Shown: piece after piece, positions 15,622-37,909 of the stretch | How the letters are laid out: each line of letters starts with the position of its first letter | How positions within the stretch are numbered: position 1 is the first letter of the stretch | NCBI GenBank assembly: GCA_017848115.1 | Contig: JAGAKZ010000037.1 | Span: 1 to 39,071, forward strand | Direction of reading: 5' to 3' | Length of the DNA: 39,071 nucleotides | From: Oscillospiraceae bacterium | GTDB lineage: Bacteria > Bacillota > Clostridia > Oscillospirales > Ruminococcaceae | Translations under genes and position numbers: made by a program | The notes under the pieces: generated by a model | Seen by the model: only the letters and a program-made list of their open reading frames with translations | Database searches by the model: none | Told to the model about the DNA's origin: nothing

Positions 15622-17418
15622 TTACTGTGGTCCAAGAACTACCGGATCCTTGCAGATATACTGTTTGAAATGAGCAAGGTCTGTAAGCTTTACATCGCCA
15701 TCTCCGTCAACATCTGCTGCTTTAAGGCTGTTTCCTGTAAGCTTGGAATCTCCGAGAAGATACAAACTGAGAAGTGTAAGATCGGAAAGATCCTTTTCAC
15801 CATCACTGTTTATATCGCCATAAGCAAAACTTTCTGTCGGCTTTGGTGTAGTAATTGCTGTTGTAGTTGTAAGAGTAGGATTTTTAGTTGTAGTAACAGA
15901 AGTTGTTTCCTTTGGCTTAGCTGTAGTAGATACTGTTGTTGTAACTGTTGTCACCGGTGGCTTTGTTGTAGTTGAAGTAACTGCCGGTGGATCTACCTTA
16001 CCGCCGTAGAATTCTGTAATACTTATACTGTTTCCTGCTGTACCCAAAGCTCTCTGATGGTCAAGACTTATGTACTTTCCGCCGTCTGTCTGCCAGAGTG
16101 ACTTTTCAAAGAGACCGTACTTTTCTTCGTCCCAGTTTGACCAGCTACTGTCAACAAGTCCGCCTGTATCGCCTGAGTTAGGGTTTACACACCAGAAAGT
16201 ATGATTTATACGGTTGTCTATCATATAGTCTCTTAGAAGTTCCATCCACTGCTGGTTCTTTCCGCCGTCCATATGACCGCCCCATTCACCGATAAGGAGT
16301 GGAGCTATACCTTCAGCATCTATAAATGCCCATGTATCATACCAGTAGTCATCAAGAAGTGTCTGTGTTGTAAAGTCCTTGTCAAACCATGTCTGTGCAT
16401 ATACGCTCGGACCGTAGTCGTGAGGTGAGTAAACTATCTGGTCGTTATAATCAGCACTGCCGAAATCGATCGGATAATCTCTTACGCCACGAAGGTTTCC
16501 GCCCCACCATGCAGGATACCATGGAGAAGCATCTCCGCTTGCACCGAATATATCAGGAGTTTCAAATGTATAACCCTTTTCTGTCTTAGGATACTGCTCG
16601 ATACCTTCGATCATGATAAGAAGATTCGGGTTTATATCGAGAATTGCCTTACCGCAGCGTTCAGCAGCATATTTCCAGTTGTTTTCAAGAGTTGTATCGT
16701 CCCAACGAGCCATTATATCAGGACATGCATCATCATAGCCACGTTTTCCGTGAGGTTCATTTTCAAGGTCAAATGCGATGATAGTATCGTCATTTTTAAA
16801 CTGCTCTGCAAGCCATACCCATGAATCGATCCAGTCATCTGTTGTAACTCCGCCTTTTCCGTACCAGAGTTCCCAGCTGTGACCTGAGTTATCAGAGTGA
16901 GGACTGTGAGCGTCCATCATAATTTTAAGACCAAATTCTTTACAGTACTGTACTACATACTGGAATATTTCCCAGCTGTTCTTTGCTTCGCCATCTTCAT
17001 CAACAAAATCCGGATTACATACATGATACGGAGGATTGTTACTTGCTGTAACACTGGAAACTTCGAGTGGTGTACCATTCATCCAGCTTACCATAAGTTC
17101 TGATGAGATCGGGATTCTGACAAGATTTATACCATGATTTGCAATATCCTCAAGAATACCCTTTACATCATACCATGCACCATGAAATACGTTTTCAGTA
17201 CAGTTGAAACCAAACCAGTTTGCACCTGTGATCCAAGCTTCGTTTCCGTAAATATCAATAAGCTTGTCGCCTTCTGCATGAAGCCAGTCATCATTGTTTG
17301 AATCAACTGCCGCACTTACTGTTTCTGCATTTTCAGAAATCGGAGCCGCTGACATTGCAAAAGCACCTGCAACAGCTACTAAACATGCAATCGCTGTGAT
17401 CTTCTTGAAATTGTTCAT
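15622..17418 (-). CDS. Secreted GH5 cellulase (endoglucanase) with C-terminal dockerin
   Basis: Extracellular retaining beta-glucanase that would be incorporated in a cellulosome. The 598-residue precursor has a signal peptide (about 1-32: basic NNFKK, hydrophobic core, AXA-type end), a GH5 catalytic domain (about 38-455), a Thr/Pro-rich linker (about 475-530) and a two-repeat dockerin (533-598; DINSDGEKDLSDL and DVDGDGDVKLTDL are the calcium loops). The acid/base Glu is E221 in LENEPHG and the nucleophile is E378 in IGEWGGH. The start at 17418 has AAGGAAGG upstream; the ORF runs 37 codons further but those residues are not signal-like. Its own promoter lies at 17491-17520. The exact substrate (cellulose, glucan or mannan) is not settled by sequence alone. 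Confidence 0.93.
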   Translation of the reverse strand: MNNFKKITAIACLVAVAGAFAMSAAPISENAETVSAAVDSNNDDWLHAEGDKLIDIYGNEAWITGANWFGFNCTENVFHGAWYDVKGILEDIANHGINLVRIPISSELMVSWMNGTPLEVSSVTASNNPPYHVCNPDFVDEDGEAKNSWEIFQYVVQYCKEFGLKIMMDAHSPHSDNSGHSWELWYGKGGVTTDDWIDSWVWLAEQFKNDDTIIAFDLENEPHGKRGYDDACPDIMARWDDTTLENNWKYAAERCGKAILDINPNLLIMIEGIEQYPKTEKGYTFETPDIFGASGDASPWYPAWWGGNLRGVRDYPIDFGSADYNDQIVYSPHDYGPSVYAQTWFDKDFTTQTLLDDYWYDTWAFIDAEGIAPLLIGEWGGHMDGGKNQQWMELLRDYMIDNRINHTFWCVNPNSGDTGGLVDSSWSNWDEEKYGLFEKSLWQTDGGKYISLDHQRALGTAGNSISITEFYGGKVDPPAVTSTTTKPPVTTVTTTVSTTAKPKETTSVTTTKNPTLTTTTAITTPKPTESFAYGDINSDGEKDLSDLTLLSLYLLGDSKLTGNSLKAADVDGDGDVKLTDLAHFKQYICKDPVVLGPQ

Positions 17419-17490
17419 TATACATTTTCCTTCCTTCAAATAATTAATCAACTTAATTGCCAAAAATAAATTTACTCTAATCCCAATTAT

Positions 17491-17520
17491 ATTATACAAT
17501 AGCTTTAATTTCATTGTCAA
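17491..17520 (-). promoter_or_regulatory. Promoter of the GH5-dockerin gene
   Basis: Minus strand: TTGACA (17520-17515), an 18-bp spacer, and TATAAT (17496-17491). This leaves a leader of about 70 bases before the start. Confidence 0.65.
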
Positions 17521-17621
17521 GTCATACAAAAAAGTTTAAACAAAATCATAATTTAATCACAAGTGTTTTTATACAACAACCTATGTTATATAAAAAAAGA
17601 ACACTATATTTTGACATATAC

Positions 17622-17700: not shown

Positions 17701-19719
17701 TTACCACGGTCTGAATCCGTCGTTACCACCACCGGCTGAACCTGCCGCAAGTGTAGTTCCTCCGGAAATAGTACCGCCTTCTCCGTAATAATCATCCCAC
17801 ATCGCAGTACCGCTTACCGTACCGCCAGTATAACATGTAACACTGCTCTGAGGTGAACAGTAGAACAGATATCTTCCGGCACTTCCCTGCGGAACTGTTA
17901 CTGTTGAAAGAACATTTCCTGACGCATCTGTAAATGTTACTCTGGTACCCGAAGAAATACTAGCACTTGTTGTAATAAACGAATAGCTGCTCGGAGTAAC
18001 CATCATATTGCTTGCACCGTATCCAAGAACAGTACCGCCTTTGTAGTTTACACCGCTGTCAGCGTCAAGAGGAGACGTATCACCACTTGTAAAACCATTT
18101 ATAACAACTGTACCGCCGTTAAGGTTGCACGCTCCGTTTGCATCAAGTCCGTCACCCTTAGCCTGCATAAAGGTATATCCTCCGTTTATGTTGAGTGTAC
18201 CGCTCGAAGATGACATTCCGCCTCCGAAGCCTCCGCCCCAGCCACCCGGGGAAGTATTTCCTGAACCGTCATTTCCGCCTGCTGCATTATAACCGTCATC
18301 AGATGCTGTTATATGTATCGTACCGCTGTTCATATTTATTGTGACACCTTCTACGCCCTCATAACTCTTCGTAATGTTTATATCAGGTGTACTAAGTTCC
18401 GTTGCACCCTGAGTACCGATATTAAGATTTGTATCCGAATGCATACCGTCATCGCCTGATGCAATAGTAATATTTCCGCCGAGTACATTCATGTCACCTG
18501 AACAATGCAAACCGTCATCACTTGAATCAATGTTTACAGTTCCGCCGTTTATTGTAAGATTACCATTGCTTGCTTTTATGCCCTTTGAACTTACGTCTGT
18601 AGTAGTACCGCCCCATGAAGAAGAACCTGTAGCAGTTGTTTTTATTGTAAGTTCTCCGTTATCCATTGTAAAGTTATGCTCTGACTGTATACCGTCTGCA
18701 TATGCTGTAATATTTATCGTTCCGCCGTTTATTATCACATTGCCCTTATCTGCGTCAGTATCATTTGTAGCTGTGATACCGTCACCACCTGACGAAACAA
18801 CTGTAACATTAAGAGCTGAAAAATCAGTATCATCAGCGTCGCCTATTTTTACGCTGTCTTTTCCTCTGATACCGTCATCTACGGCATTTACAGTAATATT
18901 TCCGTTAAATATCTTCACAGAGTCCTTACCTACTATACCGTCTGCACAATTTCCGTTTACGGTAAGATTTCCTTTTCCCTTTATTTTCAGGTCATCTTTT
19001 GAATAAATTGCACCAGAATCTTCATCAGCATTTGTATAACTTTTACCATCAGAGATCACATTATCAGTGCCCTTTTTAACGCTTATGACACACTCATCAT
19101 CTACACTTTCTACATAAATCGGTGAATCTGAAGAAGAGCTTATGTCTGCTCCCTGAAGTGAAAGTTCAACTTTTCCGGCAGGATAAGCAGTCTTGTCAAC
19201 GCTTACAATTATCTGTCCGTCATTAAGTTTACCCTTGACGATATATTCGCCGGGTTCTGTAATCGTAACAACACTTCCGCTCACTTCTGTTCCGGAACCT
19301 GTTGTTGTTATAGAGTTTCCATCAAGTAAAATCTCCTTTACTTCATCAATCCCCCCCTGATTATCATCAGTAACAGGAGGAGTTGTGGTTGTAGTCTGCT
19401 CCGGTTCAGGTACTGACGGATTTAGAAACTCATTTATCAATAATATACCATCAACGATATTTACAATATTGTCAACATTCATGTCAGCTCTCAACAAAAC
19501 ATCGCTGTCAAGTTGAATTTTTCCTACCATGTACTGTTTAAATTGCATGATATCCAATGCTGTAAGTACACCATCATTATTGATATCCCCTCTAAGCGTT
19601 GTATCTGCTTTAACAACAACCGTATTTGAAATATCATTCGAAAAATCAGATATTTCACAGTATGAAGCAACGAGAGTTGCTGATAAAATACCACACAAAA
19701 CCTTTTTAAATTTCTTCAT
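17701..19719 (-). CDS. Secreted carbohydrate-binding beta-helix protein (Cthe_2159 type) with N-terminal dockerin
   Basis: A 672-residue secreted protein. The signal peptide is about residues 1-38 and a dockerin occupies about 43-100 (DINNDGVLTALDIMQFKQY and DMNVDNIVNIVDGILL repeats). A short Thr/Pro linker follows, then a long repetitive right-handed beta-helix rich in DDGI, GDDG and INGGT turns, typical of the Cthe_2159 family of polygalacturonate-binding proteins (PF14262). A Gly/Ser-rich patch near the middle-to-end (GGWGGGFGGGMSSSS) is low-complexity. The dockerin directly after the signal peptide is unusual, since cellulosomal dockerins are mostly C-terminal. GAGG precedes the ATG at 19719; the longer frame to 19761 is not supported. 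The related genes VTC and DUF4956 lie divergently next door. Binding to pectin or cellulose is inferred from the family. Confidence 0.85.
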   Translation of the reverse strand: MKKFKKVLCGILSATLVASYCEISDFSNDISNTVVVKADTTLRGDINNDGVLTALDIMQFKQYMVGKIQLDSDVLLRADMNVDNIVNIVDGILLINEFLNPSVPEPEQTTTTTPPVTDDNQGGIDEVKEILLDGNSITTTGSGTEVSGSVVTITEPGEYIVKGKLNDGQIIVSVDKTAYPAGKVELSLQGADISSSSDSPIYVESVDDECVISVKKGTDNVISDGKSYTNADEDSGAIYSKDDLKIKGKGNLTVNGNCADGIVGKDSVKIFNGNITVNAVDDGIRGKDSVKIGDADDTDFSALNVTVVSSGGDGITATNDTDADKGNVIINGGTINITAYADGIQSEHNFTMDNGELTIKTTATGSSSWGGTTTDVSSKGIKASNGNLTINGGTVNIDSSDDGLHCSGDMNVLGGNITIASGDDGMHSDTNLNIGTQGATELSTPDINITKSYEGVEGVTINMNSGTIHITASDDGYNAAGGNDGSGNTSPGGWGGGFGGGMSSSSGTLNINGGYTFMQAKGDGLDANGACNLNGGTVVINGFTSGDTSPLDADSGVNYKGGTVLGYGASNMMVTPSSYSFITTSASISSGTRVTFTDASGNVLSTVTVPQGSAGRYLFYCSPQSSVTCYTGGTVSGTAMWDDYYGEGGTISGGTTLAAGSAGGGNDGFRPW

Positions 19720-20120
19720 TTTTTTCAACCTCTTTCTTAATATCAAACCAATCAGAATCACTCATTTTTACTTCTTACTTAAAATCACATTTATCACATA
19801 TTTTACATCACTATTGCAAGTATAAAATCATTTTATGTTTTTTTTATTGCACAATCATTAAATTTTGCATAATTTGTGCTAAATTCATCGAAAGTATTCT
19901 ACATTATATACATTTAAAATAGTATTATAATTTCAAACGAATAATGATTATAAAAATATGCACTAAAATCTCGCATATATCATTAAAACATTTTAAGATT
20001 ATTTTAAGAAATATATATTAGAATGTAGTAGAAGGAAGGGATTGAACGACAGAGAGGCGACAAAAAATAATTAGTTTTCGGTATTTTATTTTTTATGACT
20101 TGAAGAAAGAAGTGATCCTA
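19720..20120. other. 400-base AT-rich divergent intergenic region
   Basis: It separates the beta-helix dockerin gene (-) from the VTC gene (+). The sequence is very A/T-rich, with several TATAAT-like hexamers on both strands but no -35/-10 pair that stands out. A G-rich stretch at 20030-20062 (GAAGGAAGGG, then AGAGAGGCGAC) is the only compositional break and is too far from the VTC start to be its ribosome site. No gene, riboswitch or tRNA was recognised. Confidence 0.5.
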
Positions 20121-21661: not shown

Positions 21662-21707
21662 AAAAAGAATGGCAGCGTGTCAAAATCGATACGCTGCCAT
21701 TCTTTTT
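21662..21707. terminator. Strong bidirectional terminator
   Basis: A perfect 17-bp stem: AAAAAGAATGGCAGCGT (21662-21678) with ACGCTGCCATTCTTTTT (21691-21707). It is flanked by A- and T-runs, between DUF4956 (+) and the lipoprotein (-), whose stop codon overlaps it. Confidence 0.9.
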
Positions 21708-23445
21708 ATTTATCTCCTACTATACTTACTGAACAGTACTGAACATATTTTCCATCTTTTGTTTTTACCTCTACTATAACATTGCCAACAACATGAGGGA
21801 ATATTACACCATTTTTTACATACGCTATTGCGTTATCACTGCTGGTCCACAACAAATCTTCTTCAGTATATCCATCAGGTAATTTCTCAATATCTATTTT
21901 ATGTTCTCTATCGCTTCCGATGTCAAAAGATATAAAAGATTTTTTTAACTGTATGTCACTATTCAAAACTGTTGCAGCTGTAGTTGTTGCTACACCAGTT
22001 TCCTCATTCGCTTTTTTTTCTGCTTCGCTTAGTTTATAATCGATATTTCCGTACATAACTACTTTTGTATCACAGCATGAACAATGTTCTCCTTCTTTTT
22101 CATTTGCATATTCCAATGCCTCTGAAGCAGTTCTGTAACCTCCGTCAAAGAAAAAGAAATCTTTTTTCTGTTCTGAAAGCCCTTTTGAAATTTGCTTTAT
22201 CATCTTAATATTATAAGTTGTACGAATAACTCCATCATTACCCAAAAAAAGCTCTGCACCTTTGTTAAGAAAACTTGCGGCAAGAACAGTATCCTTTGCT
22301 GAACTGCAACATCCCATATACACAACAGAACCTGTCAGATCCGGACAATAATAATCAACGTACTTGTGGGAAAAACCTACTGCACCACTTTCATAGACAT
22401 AAACTCTTCTCTTTATATAGTCTTCATCATCAGTAGATATTTCTTCATTGCTACAAACAATAATCGAGTGCGAATCCAATGTATAACCACCATGACCATG
22501 CCACAATATAATCTGATTTTGCGAAAAATCATTTACTGATTTTACCTTTACTTCATCATCATCATAGTTTCCTTTAAAAGAAACATGTTCAAATTCCTCG
22601 TCCATTTTTTCAGCACCATCATCAATATAATCCATATACATATCAAGATAAAACGGATAACCTTCTTTGCACGGCTGATATGTAAAAACTTCAATACTAC
22701 CAACATCAGAAGAACCGTCTGTATCCGGTTCTTTTATCTGATAAAAACACCCTATTCCGCTTGTGAGATTTACAACCAGACTATACCCCTCTTCATATGC
22801 ATCATAATCTATTGCTATTCCTTGCTCTACCAGATCATCTGCCTTACTTAATATTTCTTCAAAAGCGCTTTTCTTATCTGTTACTACACCATCCTGAGTA
22901 TATTTCTCTGCTATCTCATCAAACATTACAGAAAGACTGTTCGCATAGTCATATTCTTCATCAGTTATATCATCAAAGTATGTAAACTTTATCGGATTGG
23001 TTTCTTCTTCTCCTATCTTTACCACATACGATTGTTCTTCACCACTCTCGGATGATACATTATATAAACATGAATAAATTTTATCTCCTGCTTTTTTATC
23101 TCCCGATGTTCCATCGTCATACATATCACATATTTTTTCGCCATCCGATGAATACAAGGCCGCCTGCACTCCCATTGCTATATCTTCATCTGATAACTTA
23201 GTTTCAAACAGTGCTGTTTCTTCTGCACCCAGCATTCTGTATTCGCTGTCAGTCTTTAGTTCATGTATATCAGGTTCAAGTTCTTTTCCATAACCATGTT
23301 CGGTATACGAACTTGACATACCTGATACAGAATTGTTGTGTCCTTCGTTAAAAAATTCTTCAAGATTGCAACCGGTAAAAACTGTTGCCATAAATACCAT
23401 TGATGAAACTAATCCTACTGTTTTTTTTAAATTTTCTTTTCTCAT
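21706..23445 (-). CDS. Lipoprotein with caspase/gingipain-like (clan CD) peptidase motifs and a C-terminal Ig-like domain
   Basis: A 579-residue lipoprotein: basic MRKENLKK, a hydrophobic stretch and lipobox FTGC with Cys26, so it is anchored outside the membrane. Residues 45-160 form a beta-rich domain with DDGTSGDKKAGDKIYS, like a 'choice-of-anchor' module. The middle (about 300-460) carries IILWHGHGGY with H316/H318 and, about 60 residues later, VVYMGCCSSAK with C379/C380. A His-Gly followed by a hydrophobic strand ending in Cys is the dyad layout of clan CD peptidases (caspase, gingipain, CHAT). About residues 500-579 resemble a bacterial Ig (BIG2-like) domain. GGGAG lies 7 bases from the ATG. 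It is the third gene after two WXG100-like genes, 27 bases downstream. Peptidase activity is inferred from two motifs only. Confidence 0.6.
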   Translation of the reverse strand: MRKENLKKTVGLVSSMVFMATVFTGCNLEEFFNEGHNNSVSGMSSSYTEHGYGKELEPDIHELKTDSEYRMLGAEETALFETKLSDEDIAMGVQAALYSSDGEKICDMYDDGTSGDKKAGDKIYSCLYNVSSESGEEQSYVVKIGEEETNPIKFTYFDDITDEEYDYANSLSVMFDEIAEKYTQDGVVTDKKSAFEEILSKADDLVEQGIAIDYDAYEEGYSLVVNLTSGIGCFYQIKEPDTDGSSDVGSIEVFTYQPCKEGYPFYLDMYMDYIDDGAEKMDEEFEHVSFKGNYDDDEVKVKSVNDFSQNQIILWHGHGGYTLDSHSIIVCSNEEISTDDEDYIKRRVYVYESGAVGFSHKYVDYYCPDLTGSVVYMGCCSSAKDTVLAASFLNKGAELFLGNDGVIRTTYNIKMIKQISKGLSEQKKDFFFFDGGYRTASEALEYANEKEGEHCSCCDTKVVMYGNIDYKLSEAEKKANEETGVATTTAATVLNSDIQLKKSFISFDIGSDREHKIDIEKLPDGYTEEDLLWTSSDNAIAYVKNGVIFPHVVGNVIVEVKTKDGKYVQYCSVSIVGDK

Positions 23446-23472
23446 TTTTTCTCCCGTTTTGTAAATCTTTAT

Positions 23473-23778
23473 TTATTCAAACTCTAATCCTGCCGCTGCT
23501 TTTGCTATTTCTTCACTTTGTGCTTCGTAGCGAATAGCAACACTTCTTATGAACTCACTGTATTGCATCATAATAAAATACATCTGTTCATACCTTGGCT
23601 TTACATTGCCTATTCTTTCAAAAAAAGTATTTGCATCATAACCTTGCCATGAGTTTCCTAGATTATCTACACTATTATACATTCTGGTGTAGCTTGAACG
23701 ATAATTCTCTGCAAGTTCCGCAATCATCTTCGAAGACGCATAAAGATCTTCGATATGGGCACTTCTGATATTATTCAT
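23473..23778 (-). CDS. WXG100 family (ESAT-6-like) small protein
   Basis: 101 residues, all-helical by appearance, with the central turn NSWQGYDANTF, i.e. the W-x-G signature at residue 44, flanked by two long amphipathic helices. That is the size and layout of WXG100/EsxA proteins, which are exported as dimers by type VII secretion systems. No obvious C-terminal YxxxD/E export signal is present. The ATG at 23778 has AGGAG upstream; a GTG nine bases earlier is too close to that site. It lies 28 bases downstream of a second such gene and 27 bases upstream of the clan-CD-like lipoprotein. No EssC/EccC ATPase is in the window. Confidence 0.8.
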   Translation of the reverse strand: MNNIRSAHIEDLYASSKMIAELAENYRSSYTRMYNSVDNLGNSWQGYDANTFFERIGNVKPRYEQMYFIMMQYSEFIRSVAIRYEAQSEEIAKAAAGLEFE

Positions 23779-23806
23779 TATTATCACACTCCTGTCTTAT
23801 TATTTT

Positions 23807-24121
23807 TTATCTTGCTCTGAGCTGAGAAGCACTTCCCTGTATTGCCTCATCAAGTGCTTCAACACTTTCAGCAACATTCTGATCAAGGAAATTTGTAACC
23901 TTTTTAAGATAATTATCATAACCATCAAAACTTGGTCTTAACGTTTCAAATGATTCAACCATCTCATTTGCTCCAAGTGCGTCCCAGTTAAGATCAAGTT
24001 TATGAATTTCTCTTGTAAAATTATTTAACAGATTTTTCATAACAACATTCTGAAGCTTTATCTCTTGCGAGCATTCTCTTATTCCCTGCGGATTTATAAA
24101 AATTTTCTCTGTTGATTCCAT
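23807..24121 (-). CDS. WXG100-like small protein, first gene of the operon
   Basis: 104 residues, helical, with NWDALGANEMVESFE around W46. This is the same hairpin position as WXG, but with Trp-Asp-Ala-Leu-Gly in place of Trp-x-Gly, so it is a divergent member. It probably forms a heterodimer with the next gene product. AAAGGA lies 8 bases from the ATG at 24121; an ATG at 24130 overlaps that site. A TATAAT box at 24178-24183 suggests transcription starts about 50 bases upstream. Confidence 0.72.
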   Translation of the reverse strand: MESTEKIFINPQGIRECSQEIKLQNVVMKNLLNNFTREIHKLDLNWDALGANEMVESFETLRPSFDGYDNYLKKVTNFLDQNVAESVEALDEAIQGSASQLRAR

Positions 24122-24177
24122 ACTAACCATCCTTTGAACTTATTTTTATTTTGTTTTCTCCAAAATTCTCTGTATGT

Positions 24178-24183
24178 ATTATA
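24178..24183 (-). promoter_or_regulatory. -10 element for the WXG100/lipoprotein operon
   Basis: Minus-strand TATAAT about 57 bases upstream of the first start. No good -35 is visible at 16-18 bases, so the promoter may be weak or activated. Confidence 0.4.
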
Positions 24184-24354
24184 TCACAATGTCTGTTTTT
24201 TTATTTAAAAAAATGATGCTCTTAATATTTTAGTTATTTTAGATAAAACAATCTGTATACATCCGCATAAATACGTGGATCAAAAAAATTTCTGCTGTTT
24301 TTCACCCATCATATAGCTGAAACTTACCATACTATACGCTGTAATTTACCCACA
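24184..24354. other. Intergenic stretch without a recognised gene
   Basis: Part of the 400-base gap between the WXG100 operon start and the AAA gene end. It is A/T-rich, contains no ORF with a ribosome site, and no element was recognised apart from the -10 box and the terminator on either side. Confidence 0.5.
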
Positions 24355-24405
24355 TAAAAAAACATGACACACCTGCAAATCAAAGCAAGTGTGTCATGTT
24401 TTTTA
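24355..24405. terminator. Terminator after the AAA/PD-(D/E)XK gene
   Basis: AACATGACACAC (24361-24372) pairs with GTGTGTCATGTT (24389-24400) and is extended by A/T pairs on both sides, with T-runs in both directions. On the minus strand it lies about 120 bases after the gene's stop. Confidence 0.75.
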
Positions 24406-24520
24406 TGAACCTGTACCGCTGTACTTTAAAGCTCCGTACATCCAAAACTTATAACTTCTGAAGTTATTTTTTATTCCAATAGCATTCTCCACAATATTCC
24501 CTTTCCGACTCAAAATACCT

Positions 24521-26237: not shown

Positions 26238-26594
26238 ATGAAAGAAAAACTTTTTGAGAGTGAAGCTAAAGTAATGGAAATCATCTGGGCGAACGCTCCT
26301 GTTTCGGCAAAGGAAATAAGTCTGATCGCAACAGATACTATCGGCTGGAACAAAAACACCACTTATACCATAATAAAAAAACTTGAGGCAAAAGGGTTTA
26401 TCAGACGTGAAGACCCCGGGTTTATCTGCACGCCTCTTGTTTCAAAAAAGGAAATGCAAAAAGTTGAAGCCGACTCTCTTTTAAAGAAAATATTTAACGG
26501 CTCAAGAAAAGCACTGTTTTCTGCACTTCTTGAAGATGAACCGCTGACGGAAAATGAGATCGACGAACTAAAAAAACTTATCGAAAAAAGGTGA
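26238..26594 (+). CDS. BlaI/MecI/CopY family transcriptional repressor
   Basis: 118 residues. The winged-helix N-terminal domain has the family opening ESEAKVMEIIWANAPVSAKE and the recognition part GWNKNTTYTIIKKLEAKGFI, and the C-terminal helices are for dimerisation. Relatives repress beta-lactamase, mecA or copper genes until a BlaR1/MecR1 protease triggers their cleavage. GGAGGT lies before the ATG. The stop at 26594 is six bases before the M56 start, so the repressor and its likely protease partner are coupled, and two operator dyads sit in the promoter. Confidence 0.92.
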   Translation: MKEKLFESEAKVMEIIWANAPVSAKEISLIATDTIGWNKNTTYTIIKKLEAKGFIRREDPGFICTPLVSKKEMQKVEADSLLKKIFNGSRKALFSALLEDEPLTENEIDELKKLIEKR

Positions 26595-26599
26595 TTGCT

Positions 26600-27514
26600 A
26601 TGTTACATGAAGTTTTTTACTGGCTTTTAAGTATGAGCATATCAGCTGTAATAACCGGAATATTCGTTCTTTTAGTAAGAAACATCAAAAAAATTCCAAA
26701 AAGAATCACGATTATACTATGGCTTGTGCCTTTTATTAGAATGGCAATACCTGTAGGACTTAACGGAAATCACAATCTCATGTCACTTATTTCAAAAATA
26801 ACAACCAGATCCATAAAAGTATATCAACCTACAAATCATGTTTCGGTTTCTATGATGAATATGACTACACTGGCAGACAGCTATTTTCCGGTGACTTACG
26901 GTTCTGTTGTTCTCGAAAAAATATTCAGCATTTCTTCAATAATCTGGATTACAGTATTTATTGCAATTGTATTGATACTTGCAATTATTTATTTTTCGAC
27001 ACTTCATGAAATGAAAGATTCAGTACATATGCGTGATAATATCTATTTTTCCACGAAAATCACATCACCTGCTGTATACGGAATCATTCGTCCGAAAATA
27101 ATTTTACCAGAATCTTATTCTGACAAGGATATCGAACTTATATTACTGCACGAAAGAACACATATAAAACGCAGGGACAATCTCTGGCGTGTGATTGCTG
27201 TTCTGATAACCGCTGTTCATTGGTTCAATCCTTTTGCATGGATATTTCTAAAAATGTTTCTTAACGATCTGGAATTGTCGTGCGATGAATGTGTTATTGC
27301 AAAATCAGGTGCTGACCGTATTAAAGAATATGCATATCAATTAGTAGAAAACAAAAGAAGTTCAAATATATTCGCTTCTGCATTCAGCGGAGGAAGAACA
27401 CGAAAAAGGATAGAAAACATATTGTCTTTTAAAAAAATGACATATTTTTCTGCTACTGTATTTGTTTTATTTATTACTGCACTATTATATGTATTATTAA
27501 CAAATCCAAGATGA
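26600..27514 (+). CDS. M56 family (BlaR1/MecR1-type) membrane metalloprotease
   Basis: 304 residues. Several membrane helices surround a cytoplasmic zinc-protease loop with HERTH at 184-188 (HExxH) and the following HWFNPFAW and LELSCDECVI, the BlaR1/MecR1 signature. In those proteins a signal across the membrane activates the zinc site, which removes the BlaI repressor. Here the sequence ends just after a last helix (about residue 300): there is no extracellular penicillin-binding sensor domain, so the signal must enter by another route. AAGGTGA is 6 bases before the ATG at 26600; a GTG at 26591 is less likely. Confidence 0.9.
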   Translation: MLHEVFYWLLSMSISAVITGIFVLLVRNIKKIPKRITIILWLVPFIRMAIPVGLNGNHNLMSLISKITTRSIKVYQPTNHVSVSMMNMTTLADSYFPVTYGSVVLEKIFSISSIIWITVFIAIVLILAIIYFSTLHEMKDSVHMRDNIYFSTKITSPAVYGIIRPKIILPESYSDKDIELILLHERTHIKRRDNLWRVIAVLITAVHWFNPFAWIFLKMFLNDLELSCDECVIAKSGADRIKEYAYQLVENKRSSNIFASAFSGGRTRKRIENILSFKKMTYFSATVFVLFITALLYVLLTNPR

Positions 27515-35512: not shown

Positions 35513-37834
35513 TTATGATTTTGATATCAATTCACGCTTCATAAGACACATATCCAATACATTAATTATGTCGTCATCACACATATCCGCAGCCTGCCAA
35601 TCTGTGAGTGTTGCGTTTGGTATGCAGATCAGCCATTTCTGAAGCATGACTACATCTGCCACATTGAATGTTCCATCTGCATTAACATCTCCAACAACCT
35701 TGTTTTTCTCCCAGTGTGCATAAAGCGTGTGGTTTTTATTTGTTGTAACAGTCGTGGATGCAGTCACTTCTGTGCCGCCATCTGCTGCAGTAAACCAACC
35801 GAGGAAAGTGTAGCCGTCTCGTGTGGGCTTAGGCAATGTTCCATAGCCCTTGCTATAAGTCACAGTAACTGAATCGTCTGATACAGTACCGCCATTTGCA
35901 TCTAGCGTAACAGTATAAGAGTTCAGCTTCCACTGTGCGTACAGTGTCTGATTAGCAGTAATCGTTACCTTGCTGTCCTTGGTGATCTGCGTACCACCGC
36001 TTTCAGCAGTAAACCAGCCCTTGAAAACATGTCCTGTACGAGTTGGTGTTGGCAAATCACCGTAAGTACTGTTGTAGGTTACTGATTTACTGGTTGTGTC
36101 GCAGGAGCCGCCGTTGGTGTTGAATGTTATGGTGTATTTGTTTGCTGTCCAGTGAGCGTAGAGAGTCTGATCTGTTGTTACTGAAACAATCGAATCTTCC
36201 GTTATCTGCGTACCGCCCTCTTTTGCTGTGTACCATCCAGCGAAAGTATATCCTGTGCGTGTCGGCTTGGGTAATGAACCATATGCAGTATTGTATAGGA
36301 TTGATTTTGTAGCAGTAGGAGTTGTTCCGCCATTAGCATCGAATGTTAGAATTCTATCGGTATAAACAATAAACTCCTGATAGTTATCAACAGTAGTAGA
36401 TTCGCCATATTGGTTACGACCGACTAAAAAATAACCATATGTGCCTGGTTCTTCGAGAGTGCAAATATAGGAGTTTTTATCTGTAACATCAATGAAGTCA
36501 ATTCGCTTTCCGTTATAATCTAACGGAATGTATAACTCTGTTGAATAAGCGGCTGAAAAACTGAATTCAACCTGCTCACCAGTTCTATATGCTTTTTTAT
36601 TATTATTGATTATCAATTCTTGTGGAGCAGAATCATATACTTTAAATTCTTTATATTCTACAACTGTTGAATTCTCACCATATTTATTTCTAGCATACAA
36701 AAAATAGCCATAAGTTCCAGCTTTATCAAAAGAACATGAATACGATGTTTTGCCGGTGACATCTATGAAATCACTACGAACTCCATTATAATCAAGAGGA
36801 ATATAGAGTTCAGCTGCATTAACACTTTCGAATTCAAATGTAACGGTTTCACCTAGTGCATATTCGGACTTATCATTTGTAATAGATAAACCAGATGGTG
36901 TATCATCATATATTATGATTTCTTGATAATCATCAACTGTAGAAGTTTCTCCCAAACTATTTCGACCGTATAGGAAAAAGCCATAAGTTCCAGCCTTATC
37001 AAAAGAACATGAATACGATGTTTTACCCGTTACATCTATAAAATCACTACGGACTCCATTATAATCCAATGGTATGTATAATTCAGTTTCGCCTTTGCTT
37101 GTAAAATTAAAAGTTACAGTTTCGCCTACTGAATATGATGTTTTGTCTGTATAAATTGAAAAGTTTTCTCTATCCAAATCAGAAACAAGAGTATTAGAAA
37201 TCAACGCATACCAATCCACATCTGTCGCCCCAGAAGAAAGCTTCGATGCACTCACCCAACTATCAGCCTGAAGCCCTCTGCCACTATAAACAGCACTTTC
37301 AATGACGTGATATGTACCATTGCTTACATTGTATCCTGTAACTGCCATAAAATGATTGGAAACATGAATTGCGGCAACACCGCCATTCTTTAAGTGGTTA
37401 ATCAATCTGGTGTCTGAAATCGTTCCATAATACTGACCGTCAATTTTGAATCCATAGCTGCTGCCATAGCCTGATTGAACTCTATTGTAAAAGGCTTGTC
37501 TATACAAACCGCCATTGCCTGGCTGATAGGATCCATTATTAACAGCCCATGTGGCAAGTTCTTCAGCTCTTATCTTACTCCCATTCAGTGCGTATATAGC
37601 ATTACAGAACGAAAAAATGCCACATCCGGACGTATACATACTGTTCCTAGATGAAGCGTACTTGGTGAATGTTACAGCTTTCCAGTAGGAATCATTCTGG
37701 TTGTACAACCTGCCCTCAGCAGCATTTGCTTCCATCATAGTTAATGGGCTGAGTGAATCGTTCGGGAACACCGACAAGAATGAAAACAGCATAAGTCCTG
37801 CAAGGAAAAAGCTTAAAAATCGGTTACGTTTCAT
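35513..37834 (-). CDS. Secreted C39-like cysteine peptidase with Ig-like and InlB-type repeats and a dockerin
   Basis: A 773-residue precursor. The signal peptide is 1-39 (ending ANAAE). A papain-fold C39-like domain (about 42-215) has Cys71 in TSGCGIFSF and His161 in SNHFMAVTGY. Three near-identical Ig-like repeats of about 90 residues (222-490) share SYSVGETVTF, ELYIPLDYNG, DFIDVTGK and DKAGTYG. Three InlB/Listeria-Bacteroides repeats (about 495-705) share 'LDANGG', 'PTRTGYTFAGW' and 'TLYAHW'. The dockerin (713-773) has DVNADGTFNVADV as its first loop; its second loop, CDDDIINVLDM, is degenerate. GGGAGG precedes the ATG at 37834. The dockerin implies docking on a cellulosome scaffold or the cell surface. 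The substrate (host, competitor or self protein) is unknown. Confidence 0.85.
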   Translation of the reverse strand: MKRNRFLSFFLAGLMLFSFLSVFPNDSLSPLTMMEANAAEGRLYNQNDSYWKAVTFTKYASSRNSMYTSGCGIFSFCNAIYALNGSKIRAEELATWAVNNGSYQPGNGGLYRQAFYNRVQSGYGSSYGFKIDGQYYGTISDTRLINHLKNGGVAAIHVSNHFMAVTGYNVSNGTYHVIESAVYSGRGLQADSWVSASKLSSGATDVDWYALISNTLVSDLDRENFSIYTDKTSYSVGETVTFNFTSKGETELYIPLDYNGVRSDFIDVTGKTSYSCSFDKAGTYGFFLYGRNSLGETSTVDDYQEIIIYDDTPSGLSITNDKSEYALGETVTFEFESVNAAELYIPLDYNGVRSDFIDVTGKTSYSCSFDKAGTYGYFLYARNKYGENSTVVEYKEFKVYDSAPQELIINNNKKAYRTGEQVEFSFSAAYSTELYIPLDYNGKRIDFIDVTDKNSYICTLEEPGTYGYFLVGRNQYGESTTVDNYQEFIVYTDRILTFDANGGTTPTATKSILYNTAYGSLPKPTRTGYTFAGWYTAKEGGTQITEDSIVSVTTDQTLYAHWTANKYTITFNTNGGSCDTTSKSVTYNSTYGDLPTPTRTGHVFKGWFTAESGGTQITKDSKVTITANQTLYAQWKLNSYTVTLDANGGTVSDDSVTVTYSKGYGTLPKPTRDGYTFLGWFTAADGGTEVTASTTVTTNKNHTLYAHWEKNKVVGDVNADGTFNVADVVMLQKWLICIPNATLTDWQAADMCDDDIINVLDMCLMKRELISKS

Positions 37835-37909
37835 ACTAAAACCTCCCATAAATAGAATAATATAGTTACAGAGCACACAAGATAATCACATCTGGCTACT
37901 CTTATCTGT

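What the first reader, a model, noticed from the sequence alone, without database searches (positions are those of the whole stretch)
21706..24190. Two WXG100-like proteins in an operon with a clan-CD-like lipoprotein peptidase
Seen: two helical proteins of about 100 residues with W-x-G or W-D-A-L-G turns, followed by a lipoprotein with WHGHGGY and, about 60 residues later, YMGCCSSA. Spacings are 27-28 bases. Known: WXG100 proteins are exported by type VII secretion; caspase, CHAT and gingipain-like peptidases use a His-Gly...Cys dyad. Inference: a surface-tethered peptidase that acts with, or on, a secreted WXG100 pair. No type VII ATPase or toxin lies beside it.
Basis: partly seen in the sequence, partly recalled or inferred. 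Interest (0 to 1): 0.75.

Follow-up and report, generated by a model that had tools for sequence, protein, structure and literature searches.

The report
Secretion-linked surface cysteine peptidase with WXG100 pair
A Ruminococcus-like bacterium carries a three-gene unit of two small type VII secretion proteins and a membrane-tethered enzyme that looks like a caspase/gingipain-type protease, and in some relatives the same unit sits inside the type VII secretion gene cluster, which suggests that these secretion systems can carry their own surface protease.

Summary
On the minus strand, 24130-21706, two WXG100-family genes precede a 579-residue lipoprotein with a clan-CD-type His/Cys signature. 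The operon lies between two bidirectional hairpins. The dyad is resolved: H318 and C380 are invariant in 25 of 25 aligned domains, while H316 and C379 are not. Six of 24 aligned members weakly match Pfam Peptidase_C25 and three match CHAT; one seen singly is above cut-off.

The genome has two EssC genes. In three relatives EssC lies just upstream of WXG100 genes and this lipoprotein. The lipoprotein type is one clade (99/97), and all six genomes known to have it carry EssC.

A second lipoprotein type fills the same slot elsewhere. It shares an anchor motif (C-x-x-E-x-F-F) and the Ig-like end, but not the peptidase.

Best reading: a rare, accessory, surface-tethered cysteine peptidase of a T7SSe-like system, acting on exported or surface proteins of that system. 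That it cuts WXG100 proteins is untested.

The parts
23807..24130 (-). WXG100-family protein, type 2 (NWDALG turn); a second ATG at 24121 is an alternative start
   Evidence: Pfam WXG100 6.9e-4 (below cut-off), NCBIfam ESAT6_2 3.2e-12 (below its cut-off); 67% identical to a WXG100 gene in the EssC locus on contig C48
23473..23787 (-). WXG100-family protein, type 3 (SWQG turn); likely start is the ATG at 23778 behind AGGAG
   Evidence: Pfam WXG100 1.8e-6, above cut-off; 68% identical to the third WXG100 gene of the G010 T7SS locus
21706..23445 (-). Lipoprotein with predicted clan-CD-like cysteine peptidase domain (LipoPEP), 579 aa
   Evidence: Sequence; alignments A1-A4; one clade with five relatives
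23368..23445 (-). Signal peptide through lipobox cysteine C26 (residues 1-26)
   Evidence: Hydrophobic segment 10-28; C26 invariant in 6 of 6 aligned full-length members
23347..23370 (-). Anchor motif after the lipobox, CNLEEFFN (residues 26-33), shared with the second lipoprotein type of T7SS loci
23041..23124 (-). Choice-of-anchor X motif (residues 108-135) of the N-terminal domain
   Evidence: NCBIfam NF041940 6.5e-6, 25.8 bits against a cut-off of 25; 17 of 24 members of A2 match it
22018..22878 (-). Predicted peptidase domain, about residues 190-476
   Evidence: Profile-aligned family; six of 24 members match Pfam Peptidase_C25 and three match CHAT, P0001 itself neither
22489..22494 (-). 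H318-G319, predicted catalytic histidine and following glycine
   Evidence: Invariant in 25 of 25 aligned domains
22306..22308 (-). C380, predicted nucleophile
   Evidence: Invariant in 25 of 25 aligned domains; C379 and H316 vary
21721..21990 (-). C-terminal Ig-like (Big_2-type) domain, about residues 486-575
   Evidence: HL_N-beta 0.0012, below cut-off, in P0001; Big_2 above cut-off in the L051 relative; the best-scoring Big domains outside the peptidase type belong to the second lipoprotein type
21662..21707 (.). Bidirectional terminator-like hairpin ending the operon
24353..24407 (.). Bidirectional hairpin separating the operon from the upstream AAA-ATPase gene

Best explanation
The operon encodes an accessory of a T7SSe-like type VII secretion system. 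Two WXG100 proteins are exported by the EssC of the system, which is encoded elsewhere in this genome. The third product goes out by the Sec route and is tethered to the outer face of the membrane by a lipid at C26. Its middle domain is a cysteine peptidase of caspase/gingipain-like (clan CD) type with an H318/C380 dyad. It sits where exported proteins emerge, probably docked through the short motif behind the lipid anchor and the C-terminal Ig-like domain. There it trims exported proteins or surface parts of the system: the same kind of job as mycobacterial surface proteases of T7SS such as PecA, from an unrelated fold. Shown here: gene order, conservation, shared anchor motif, invariant dyad, presence of a secretion system in the genome. 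Inferred: export of the WXG100 pair, clan CD fold, catalytic activity, surface location, docking and substrate.
For: H318, G319 and C380 are invariant in 25 of 25 aligned domains, and His-Gly and Cys motifs are present in 4 of 4 further homologues found later (a fifth, L146, is the same protein as L056). Six of 24 members match Pfam Peptidase_C25 at E up to 1 and three match CHAT. The five C25 matches and the L059 CHAT match seen singly cover the cysteine or begin within 12 residues after it; the best C25 match is 2.4e-5, above cut-off. In G010, G461 and G462 the peptidase lipoprotein gene follows WXG100 genes downstream of EssC; in the window genome it follows WXG100 genes on another contig than EssC. 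The six lipoprotein-type domains are one clade, 99/97. EssC is above its cut-off in 6 of 6 genomes with the lipoprotein type, against 2 of 13 genomes with other architectures. The anchor motif occurs in 10 of 51 predicted lipoproteins of the held loci, all ten of the two T7SS-linked types (counting L138 with Gln). In the own genome 2 of 12 DNA matches to the motif have a lipobox in frame, and they are exactly these two genes.
Against: P0001 itself matches no peptidase model in Pfam or NCBIfam. The family scan that gave the C25 and CHAT matches also gave unrelated weak ones, such as IBP39 in three members (best 0.016). Profile comparison with C11 was not significant: probability 0.5%, the highest of eight comparisons, with seven unrelated families at 0.07-0.3%. 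No solved structure was matched convincingly; a CHAT-domain protein appears at E 2.9. In 2 of 6 genomes (G002, G463) the peptidase lipoprotein is not beside WXG100 or EssC in the held flanks. T7SS loci whose slot holds only the other lipoprotein type exist. The full-length type is rare: at E up to 1e-15 the window's own gene was the only near-full-length match in 394 order-level and 391 class-level genomes, so the pattern rests on six genes. No substrate or cleavage site was identified. In G461 the gap from WXG100 to the lipoprotein is 222 bases, so co-transcription there is less sure.
Confidence: 0.5

Rival explanations
1. The lipoprotein is a surface peptidase regulated with the T7SS but aimed at outside targets (dietary, host or competitor proteins, or activation of other surface enzymes); the WXG100 proteins are separate cargo.
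For: Homologous domains occur in proteins of other architecture: in the 13 whose flanks were scanned there is no WXG100 hit, and 11 of those 13 genomes have no EssC above cut-off, so the domain has uses outside T7SS. The window also holds three dockerin-bearing proteins of cellulosome type.
Against: The lipoprotein type is a single clade, all six in EssC-bearing genomes and four of six directly behind WXG100 genes. It shares its anchor motif and Ig-like domain with another T7SS-locus lipoprotein.
Confidence: 0.22
2. A mostly structural part of the secretion apparatus: the lipoprotein slot behind the WXG100 pair gives an envelope component, and peptidase activity is secondary or dispensable, as reported for the protease activity of MycP.
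For: The same slot is filled by a lipoprotein with similar ends but no peptidase domain in G000 C48, G002 C41, G203, G006 and G038. MycP1 protease activity is dispensable for secretion while the protein is needed (abstract of PMC5082899).
Against: Strict conservation of H318 and C380 in 25 of 25 domains, including members of unrelated architecture, points to catalysis under selection.
Confidence: 0.15
3. The lipoprotein is itself a T7SS substrate, and the WXG100 pair are its co-secretion partners, as for the reverse-arranged T7SS lipase TslA.
For: WXG100-related genes beside candidate substrates are common at T7SS loci (PMC11217815 section 15).
Against: It has a Sec-type signal with an invariant lipobox cysteine. 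Its C-terminus is a Big_2-type domain and not a helical targeting domain.
Confidence: 0.06
4. Chance neighbourhood: WXG100 genes and an unrelated lipoprotein.
For: In G002 and G463 the homologue is not beside WXG100 or EssC in the held flanks; only six full-length genes are known here.
Against: Order kept in relatives whose lipoproteins are about 35% identical, one clade, shared anchor motif, tight spacing between hairpins.
Confidence: 0.04

Closest known systems
T7SSe / T7SSj of Bacillota (Garrett, Higginson and Palmer 2024, PMC11217815; sections 9, 11, 13, 14, 15 and passages read)
   Same: The home locus on C48 has EssC with FHA domain, a small protein in the EsaB position, WXG100 genes of two types, protein kinase, PP2C phosphatase and a DUF6382-FHA protein. 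A giant protein lies next to the locus in G461 and G462; the G461 one has Ig-like domains and an N-terminal hydrophobic segment.
   Different: The terms peptidase and lipoprotein do not occur in the paper's main text. The lipoprotein slot, and the two proteins upstream of EssC here, are not among the components named in the sections read.
Clan CD cysteine peptidases: gingipain C25, CHAT, clostripain C11
   Same: Hydrophobic stretch ending in His-Gly, a later one ending in Cys, then a Leu-rich stretch and a Gly-Ala turn; six of 24 members match C25 and three match CHAT, mostly weakly.
   Different: P0001 matches no peptidase model; no significant profile match to C11; lipoprotein with an N-terminal choice-of-anchor X domain.
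Mycobacterial surface proteases of T7SS: mycosin MycP (PMC5082899) and PecA (PMC6819658); abstracts and outlines seen
   Same: Proteases tied to type VII secretion; PecA is surface-associated and cleaves T7SS substrates.
   Different: A serine protease (MycP) and an aspartic protease (PecA). MycP is described as a conserved component, whereas other loci here have only the second lipoprotein type in the slot.
Caspase-like releasing peptidases of polymorphic toxins (PMC3482391; passages seen)
   Same: Clan CD domains that trim proteins moved by secretion systems, including T7SS.
   Different: Those are domains inside the toxin chain; here the domain sits in a separate lipid-anchored protein without a recognised toxin domain.

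Membership tests
WXG100 / ESAT-6 family | About 100 residues, match to PF06013 | tested here: met
   Second protein 1.8e-6, above cut-off; first 6.9e-4, below cut-off, but 67% identical to a C48 WXG100 gene that is above it
WXG100 / ESAT-6 family | Helical hairpin with central W-x-G | tested here: inconclusive
   SWQG in the second, NWDALG (no strict W-x-G) in the first; no structure could be predicted
WXG100 / ESAT-6 family | Export by an EssC-type system | not testable with these tools
   Two EssC genes above cut-off in the genome; export itself not testable
Clan CD cysteine peptidases | His-Cys dyad in the order His-Gly ... Cys at ends of hydrophobic stretches | tested here: met
   H318, G319 and C380 invariant in 25 of 25; motifs in 4 of 4 further homologues
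Clan CD cysteine peptidases | Caspase-hemoglobinase fold | not testable with these tools
Peptidase family C25 (PF01364) | Match above Pfam gathering score | tested here: not met
   No hit for P0001. Six of 24 members match at E up to 1; of the five seen singly only L097 is above cut-off
Peptidase family C11 (clostripain) | Significant profile match | tested here: not met
   hhalign probability 0.5%, although the 12 aligned columns pair the His-Gly motifs
Bacterial lipoprotein | Signal peptide and lipobox cysteine | tested here: met
   VFTGC26 after a hydrophobic segment; C26 invariant in 6 of 6 aligned full-length members
T7SSe | TseA, A2, B, C, D, F, J components at the locus | tested here: met
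   On C48: EssC with FHA, two WXG100 types, kinase, PP2C and DUF6382-FHA. TseB is assigned only by size and position: the 84-aa protein has no Pfam match
T7SSe | TseI, TseH, TseK | tested here: inconclusive
   Ig-like giant protein next to the G461 locus, but no C-terminal membrane segment by simple hydropathy; a 268-aa protein with one such segment in G000 could be TseH or TseK. TseI was not searched for in G000
Mycosin (MycP) | Serine protease, conserved component of each ESX system | tested here: not met
   Different catalytic signature (His-Gly...Cys); loci with only the other lipoprotein in the slot exist

The most novel reading that the evidence does not exclude
Type VII secretion in this Bacillota lineage carries a swappable, lipid-anchored surface module in the slot behind its WXG100 pair. 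A constant membrane-docking motif and a constant Ig-like end hold exchangeable middles, one of which is a clan CD cysteine peptidase that processes exported WXG100-linked proteins: a convergent, non-core counterpart of mycobacterial T7SS surface proteolysis, from a peptidase family not yet classified.
Probability: 0.3. Interest if true: 0.75.

Novelty: new variant of a known kind. Interest (0 to 1): 0.58.

Why it matters
Proteolysis at the surface is part of mycobacterial type VII secretion, but the listings of the paper searches made here showed no dedicated peptidase at a Bacillota T7SS. If right, this gives a gene, a dyad (H318/C380) and a short anchor motif for testing how exported WXG100 proteins are handled outside the cell in the Ruminococcus group. 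It also defines a clan-CD-like peptidase family that occurs in several protein architectures and has no model of its own in the Pfam and NCBIfam copies searched.

Tried and rejected
Structure prediction was the planned decisive test and could not be run. The fold was instead approached through family matches, profile comparison with C11, and sequence searches of solved structures; only the family matches helped. A candidate cleavage signal (the basic tails of the type 2 WXG100 proteins) was considered and dropped: it does not track with the peptidase, because the C48 type 2 proteins beside the other lipoprotein have it too. An S-layer (SLH) label for the second lipoprotein was an impression by eye; Pfam found no such domain, only Big_2 and other Ig-like models, so it is called the second lipoprotein type here. 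A plasmid or phage origin found no support: no match to P0001 in either collection. The first genome-contig scan with P0001 alone found no relative; the scan with alignment A1 found 37 loci. A short DNA alignment told nothing.

Rows dropped: of the 37 loci, L070-L072 and L075-L085 matched mainly over the N-terminal domain, and L063-L065 cover only that part; none of these entered the peptidase counts. L074 was left out because the core profile did not reach it at E 0.01. L073 was in the 25-row count but not in A2 (24 rows) or A3 (22 rows). L060 and L092 were left out of A3, and the L095 piece in A3 begins after the histidine, so A3 alone shows only the cysteine as invariant; the 21-row tree also leaves out L095. 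L146 is the same protein as L056 and was not counted as new. The flanks of the other-architecture homologues found were not scanned for WXG100 genes. G002 also has a shortened neighbour (237 aa) without the peptidase domain or the FF motif, and G373 a 291-aa relative of the second lipoprotein type without the motif; in G203 and G006 the motif of the second type has one extra residue. G038 has a 227-aa piece of a LipoPEP-like protein at a contig end, with CNAENFF, which the lipoprotein filter missed. The loci counted were mostly brought in by searches with this family, so its background is not a random sample.
Full report
What is there. The minus strand at 24130-21706 holds two WXG100-family genes and a 579-residue lipoprotein gene. 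The likely starts have good ribosome sites: AAAGGA before the ATG at 24121, AGGAG before the ATG at 23778, GGGAG before the ATG at 23445. These give gaps of 28 and 27 bases. A bidirectional hairpin overlaps the end of the lipoprotein gene (21662-21707) and another lies upstream of the first gene (about 24353-24407); both fold far better than shuffles on both strands. The neighbours are a VTC and DUF4956 pair on one side and an AAA_35 gene with a PD-(D/E)XK-like end (just below cut-off) on the other.

The lipoprotein. It has a signal peptide with lipobox cysteine C26, the motif CNLEEFFN, an N-terminal domain with a choice-of-anchor X motif (108-135; NCBIfam just above cut-off), a domain with the signature WHGHGGY ... 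YMGCC, and a C-terminal Big_2-type domain. Searches of relatives and of genome contigs gave a family. In a 25-row alignment (P0001 and 24 homologues) H318, G319 and C380 never change; G317 and W315 are each kept in 19 of 25. Four homologues found later also have the His-Gly and Cys motifs.

Is it clan CD? The motif order is that of clan CD (clostripain motif His-Gly...Ala-Cys, as quoted in passages of PMC12445089). Six of 24 family members match Pfam Peptidase_C25 at E up to 1 and three match CHAT. Those seen singly are L097 2.4e-5 (above cut-off), L088 5.2e-4, L054 0.002, L062 0.049 and L056 0.13 for C25, and L059 1.9e-4 and L095 0.0015 for CHAT. The five C25 matches fall in one part of the profile and cover the cysteine or begin within 12 residues after it. 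Against this, P0001 itself matches neither; the same scan gave unrelated weak matches such as IBP39 in three members (best 0.016); a profile comparison with a C11 alignment from 17 loci was not significant (0.5%, the highest of eight comparisons, the seven unrelated families lying at 0.07-0.3%); and solved structures gave nothing convincing. I put clan CD at about 85%; that figure is a judgement.

The secretion system. The genome (81% complete) has two EssC genes above the family cut-off, on C48 and C15, and four more WXG100 matches on C48. The C48 locus reads: kinase, PP2C phosphatase and DUF6382-FHA protein on one strand; then on the other a 304-aa protein, a 326-aa protein, EssC with FHA, an 84-aa protein in the EsaB position, WXG100 types 1 and 2, a 714-aa lipoprotein of a second type, and WXG100 types 1 and 2 again. 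This matches most named parts of T7SSe in PMC11217815 (sections read: 9, 11, 13, 14, 15); TseI, TseH and TseK remain unsettled.

Gene order in relatives. In G010 (the same record as L049, Ruminococcus sp. SIG549) the order is EssC, EsaB-like, WXG100 types 1, 2 and 3, peptidase lipoprotein, then the same DUF4956 and VTC genes as in the window. So the window holds the right-hand end of that locus, while the left-hand part lies on C48, a different contig. In G461 (L051) and G462 (L052), whose lipoproteins are 33-35% identical to P0001, EssC, two WXG100-like genes and the peptidase lipoprotein are again consecutive. In G002 (L050) and G463 (L053) the homologue has no WXG100 or EssC gene in the held flanks, although both genomes have EssC. 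Altogether 4 of 6 full-length peptidase lipoproteins directly follow WXG100 genes, 3 of 6 have EssC just upstream of those, and 6 of 6 genomes have EssC above cut-off. G038 has a seventh, incomplete copy at a contig end inside a T7SS locus. Among 13 homologues of other architecture (L054-L062, L066-L069) none has a WXG100 hit in its held flank, which for some is short, and 2 of 13 genomes have EssC above cut-off. The six lipoprotein-type domains form one clade (99/97, 21-row tree; the bootstrap had not fully settled).

Rarity. In 394 order-level and 391 class-level genomes, at E up to 1e-15, the window's own gene was the only near-full-length match; in 396 family-level genomes only the own gene and G010 matched over nearly the full length. 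All statements on order therefore rest on six genes.

A shared anchor and a shared end. The second lipoprotein type has a middle without a detected peptidase domain but occupies the same slot behind the WXG100 pair in G000 C48, G002 C41, G203, G006 and G038, and lies behind EssC in G373; in G463 C96 it follows WXG100 genes without EssC in the held stretch. Both types carry the motif C-x-x-[acidic or similar]-x-F-F right behind the lipid site. Of 51 predicted lipoproteins in the loci held, ten have it (nine by the strict expression, plus L138 with Gln), all of these two types; the other 41 do not. In the own genome 12 DNA matches to one spelling of the motif exist, and only two have a lipobox in frame, these two genes. 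The best-scoring Big domains outside the peptidase type are, at the top of the list, those of the second type. Exceptions: two shortened paralogues lack the motif and two members have one extra residue.

How it most likely works. Sec export and lipid anchoring place the peptidase on the outer face of the membrane. The shared anchor motif and Ig-like end suggest docking at the secretion complex or in the wall beside it. There it could trim exported proteins, or surface parts such as the giant Ig-like protein. Mycobacteria show that surface proteases can serve T7SS: PecA cleaves T7SS substrates (abstract of PMC6819658), and MycP is needed for secretion although its protease activity can be dispensable (abstract of PMC5082899). 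The peptidase here does not look like a core part, because loci of the same type carry only the second lipoprotein in the slot. All of this paragraph beyond the cited facts is inference.

Novelty. The listings of the searches of the held paper library showed no dedicated peptidase at a Bacillota T7SS; most subscription papers are not in that library. Caspase-like domains inside T7SS-linked toxins are known (passages of PMC3482391). I therefore call this a new variant of a known kind.

Noticed in passing
L045:9960-10940 (-) and L045:10943-11857 (-), contig C48 of the window's genome: Two proteins directly upstream of EssC. The 326-aa one matches the Rep3_N initiator winged-helix domain (7.1e-6) and is more conserved than EssC in 7 of 7 loci compared with C48. 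Neither is among the T7SS components named in the sections of PMC11217815 that were read, so they may be unrecognised core parts.
   Followed up: partly
L045:1909-4053 (-): The 714-aa second lipoprotein type between two WXG100 pairs, with Big_2 at its end and an unassigned middle; the same type fills the slot behind WXG100 genes or EssC in other genomes.
   Followed up: partly
window 15622-17529 (-), 17701-19761 (-), 35513-37876 (-): Three dockerin-bearing proteins (GH5 cellulase, Cthe_2159 carbohydrate-binding domain, Listeria-Bacteroides repeats): cellulosome-type parts.
   Followed up: no
window 26238-27514 (+): A penicillinase-repressor (BlaI-type) and M56 BlaR1-type peptidase pair next to the operon's upstream neighbour.
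   Followed up: no
L055:9071-12559 (+): A 1162-aa homologue whose first residues look FHA-like (by eye, not tested) carries the same peptidase domain, so the domain may also be tied to phospho-signalling proteins.
   Followed up: no
L063, L064, L065 (two Ruminococcus albus strains and a Ruminococcus MAG): Lipoproteins of 270-284 aa that match the peptidase lipoprotein over its N-terminal part (about 55-237) and have no W-x-G-H-G or Cys motif of the peptidase domain.
   Followed up: no
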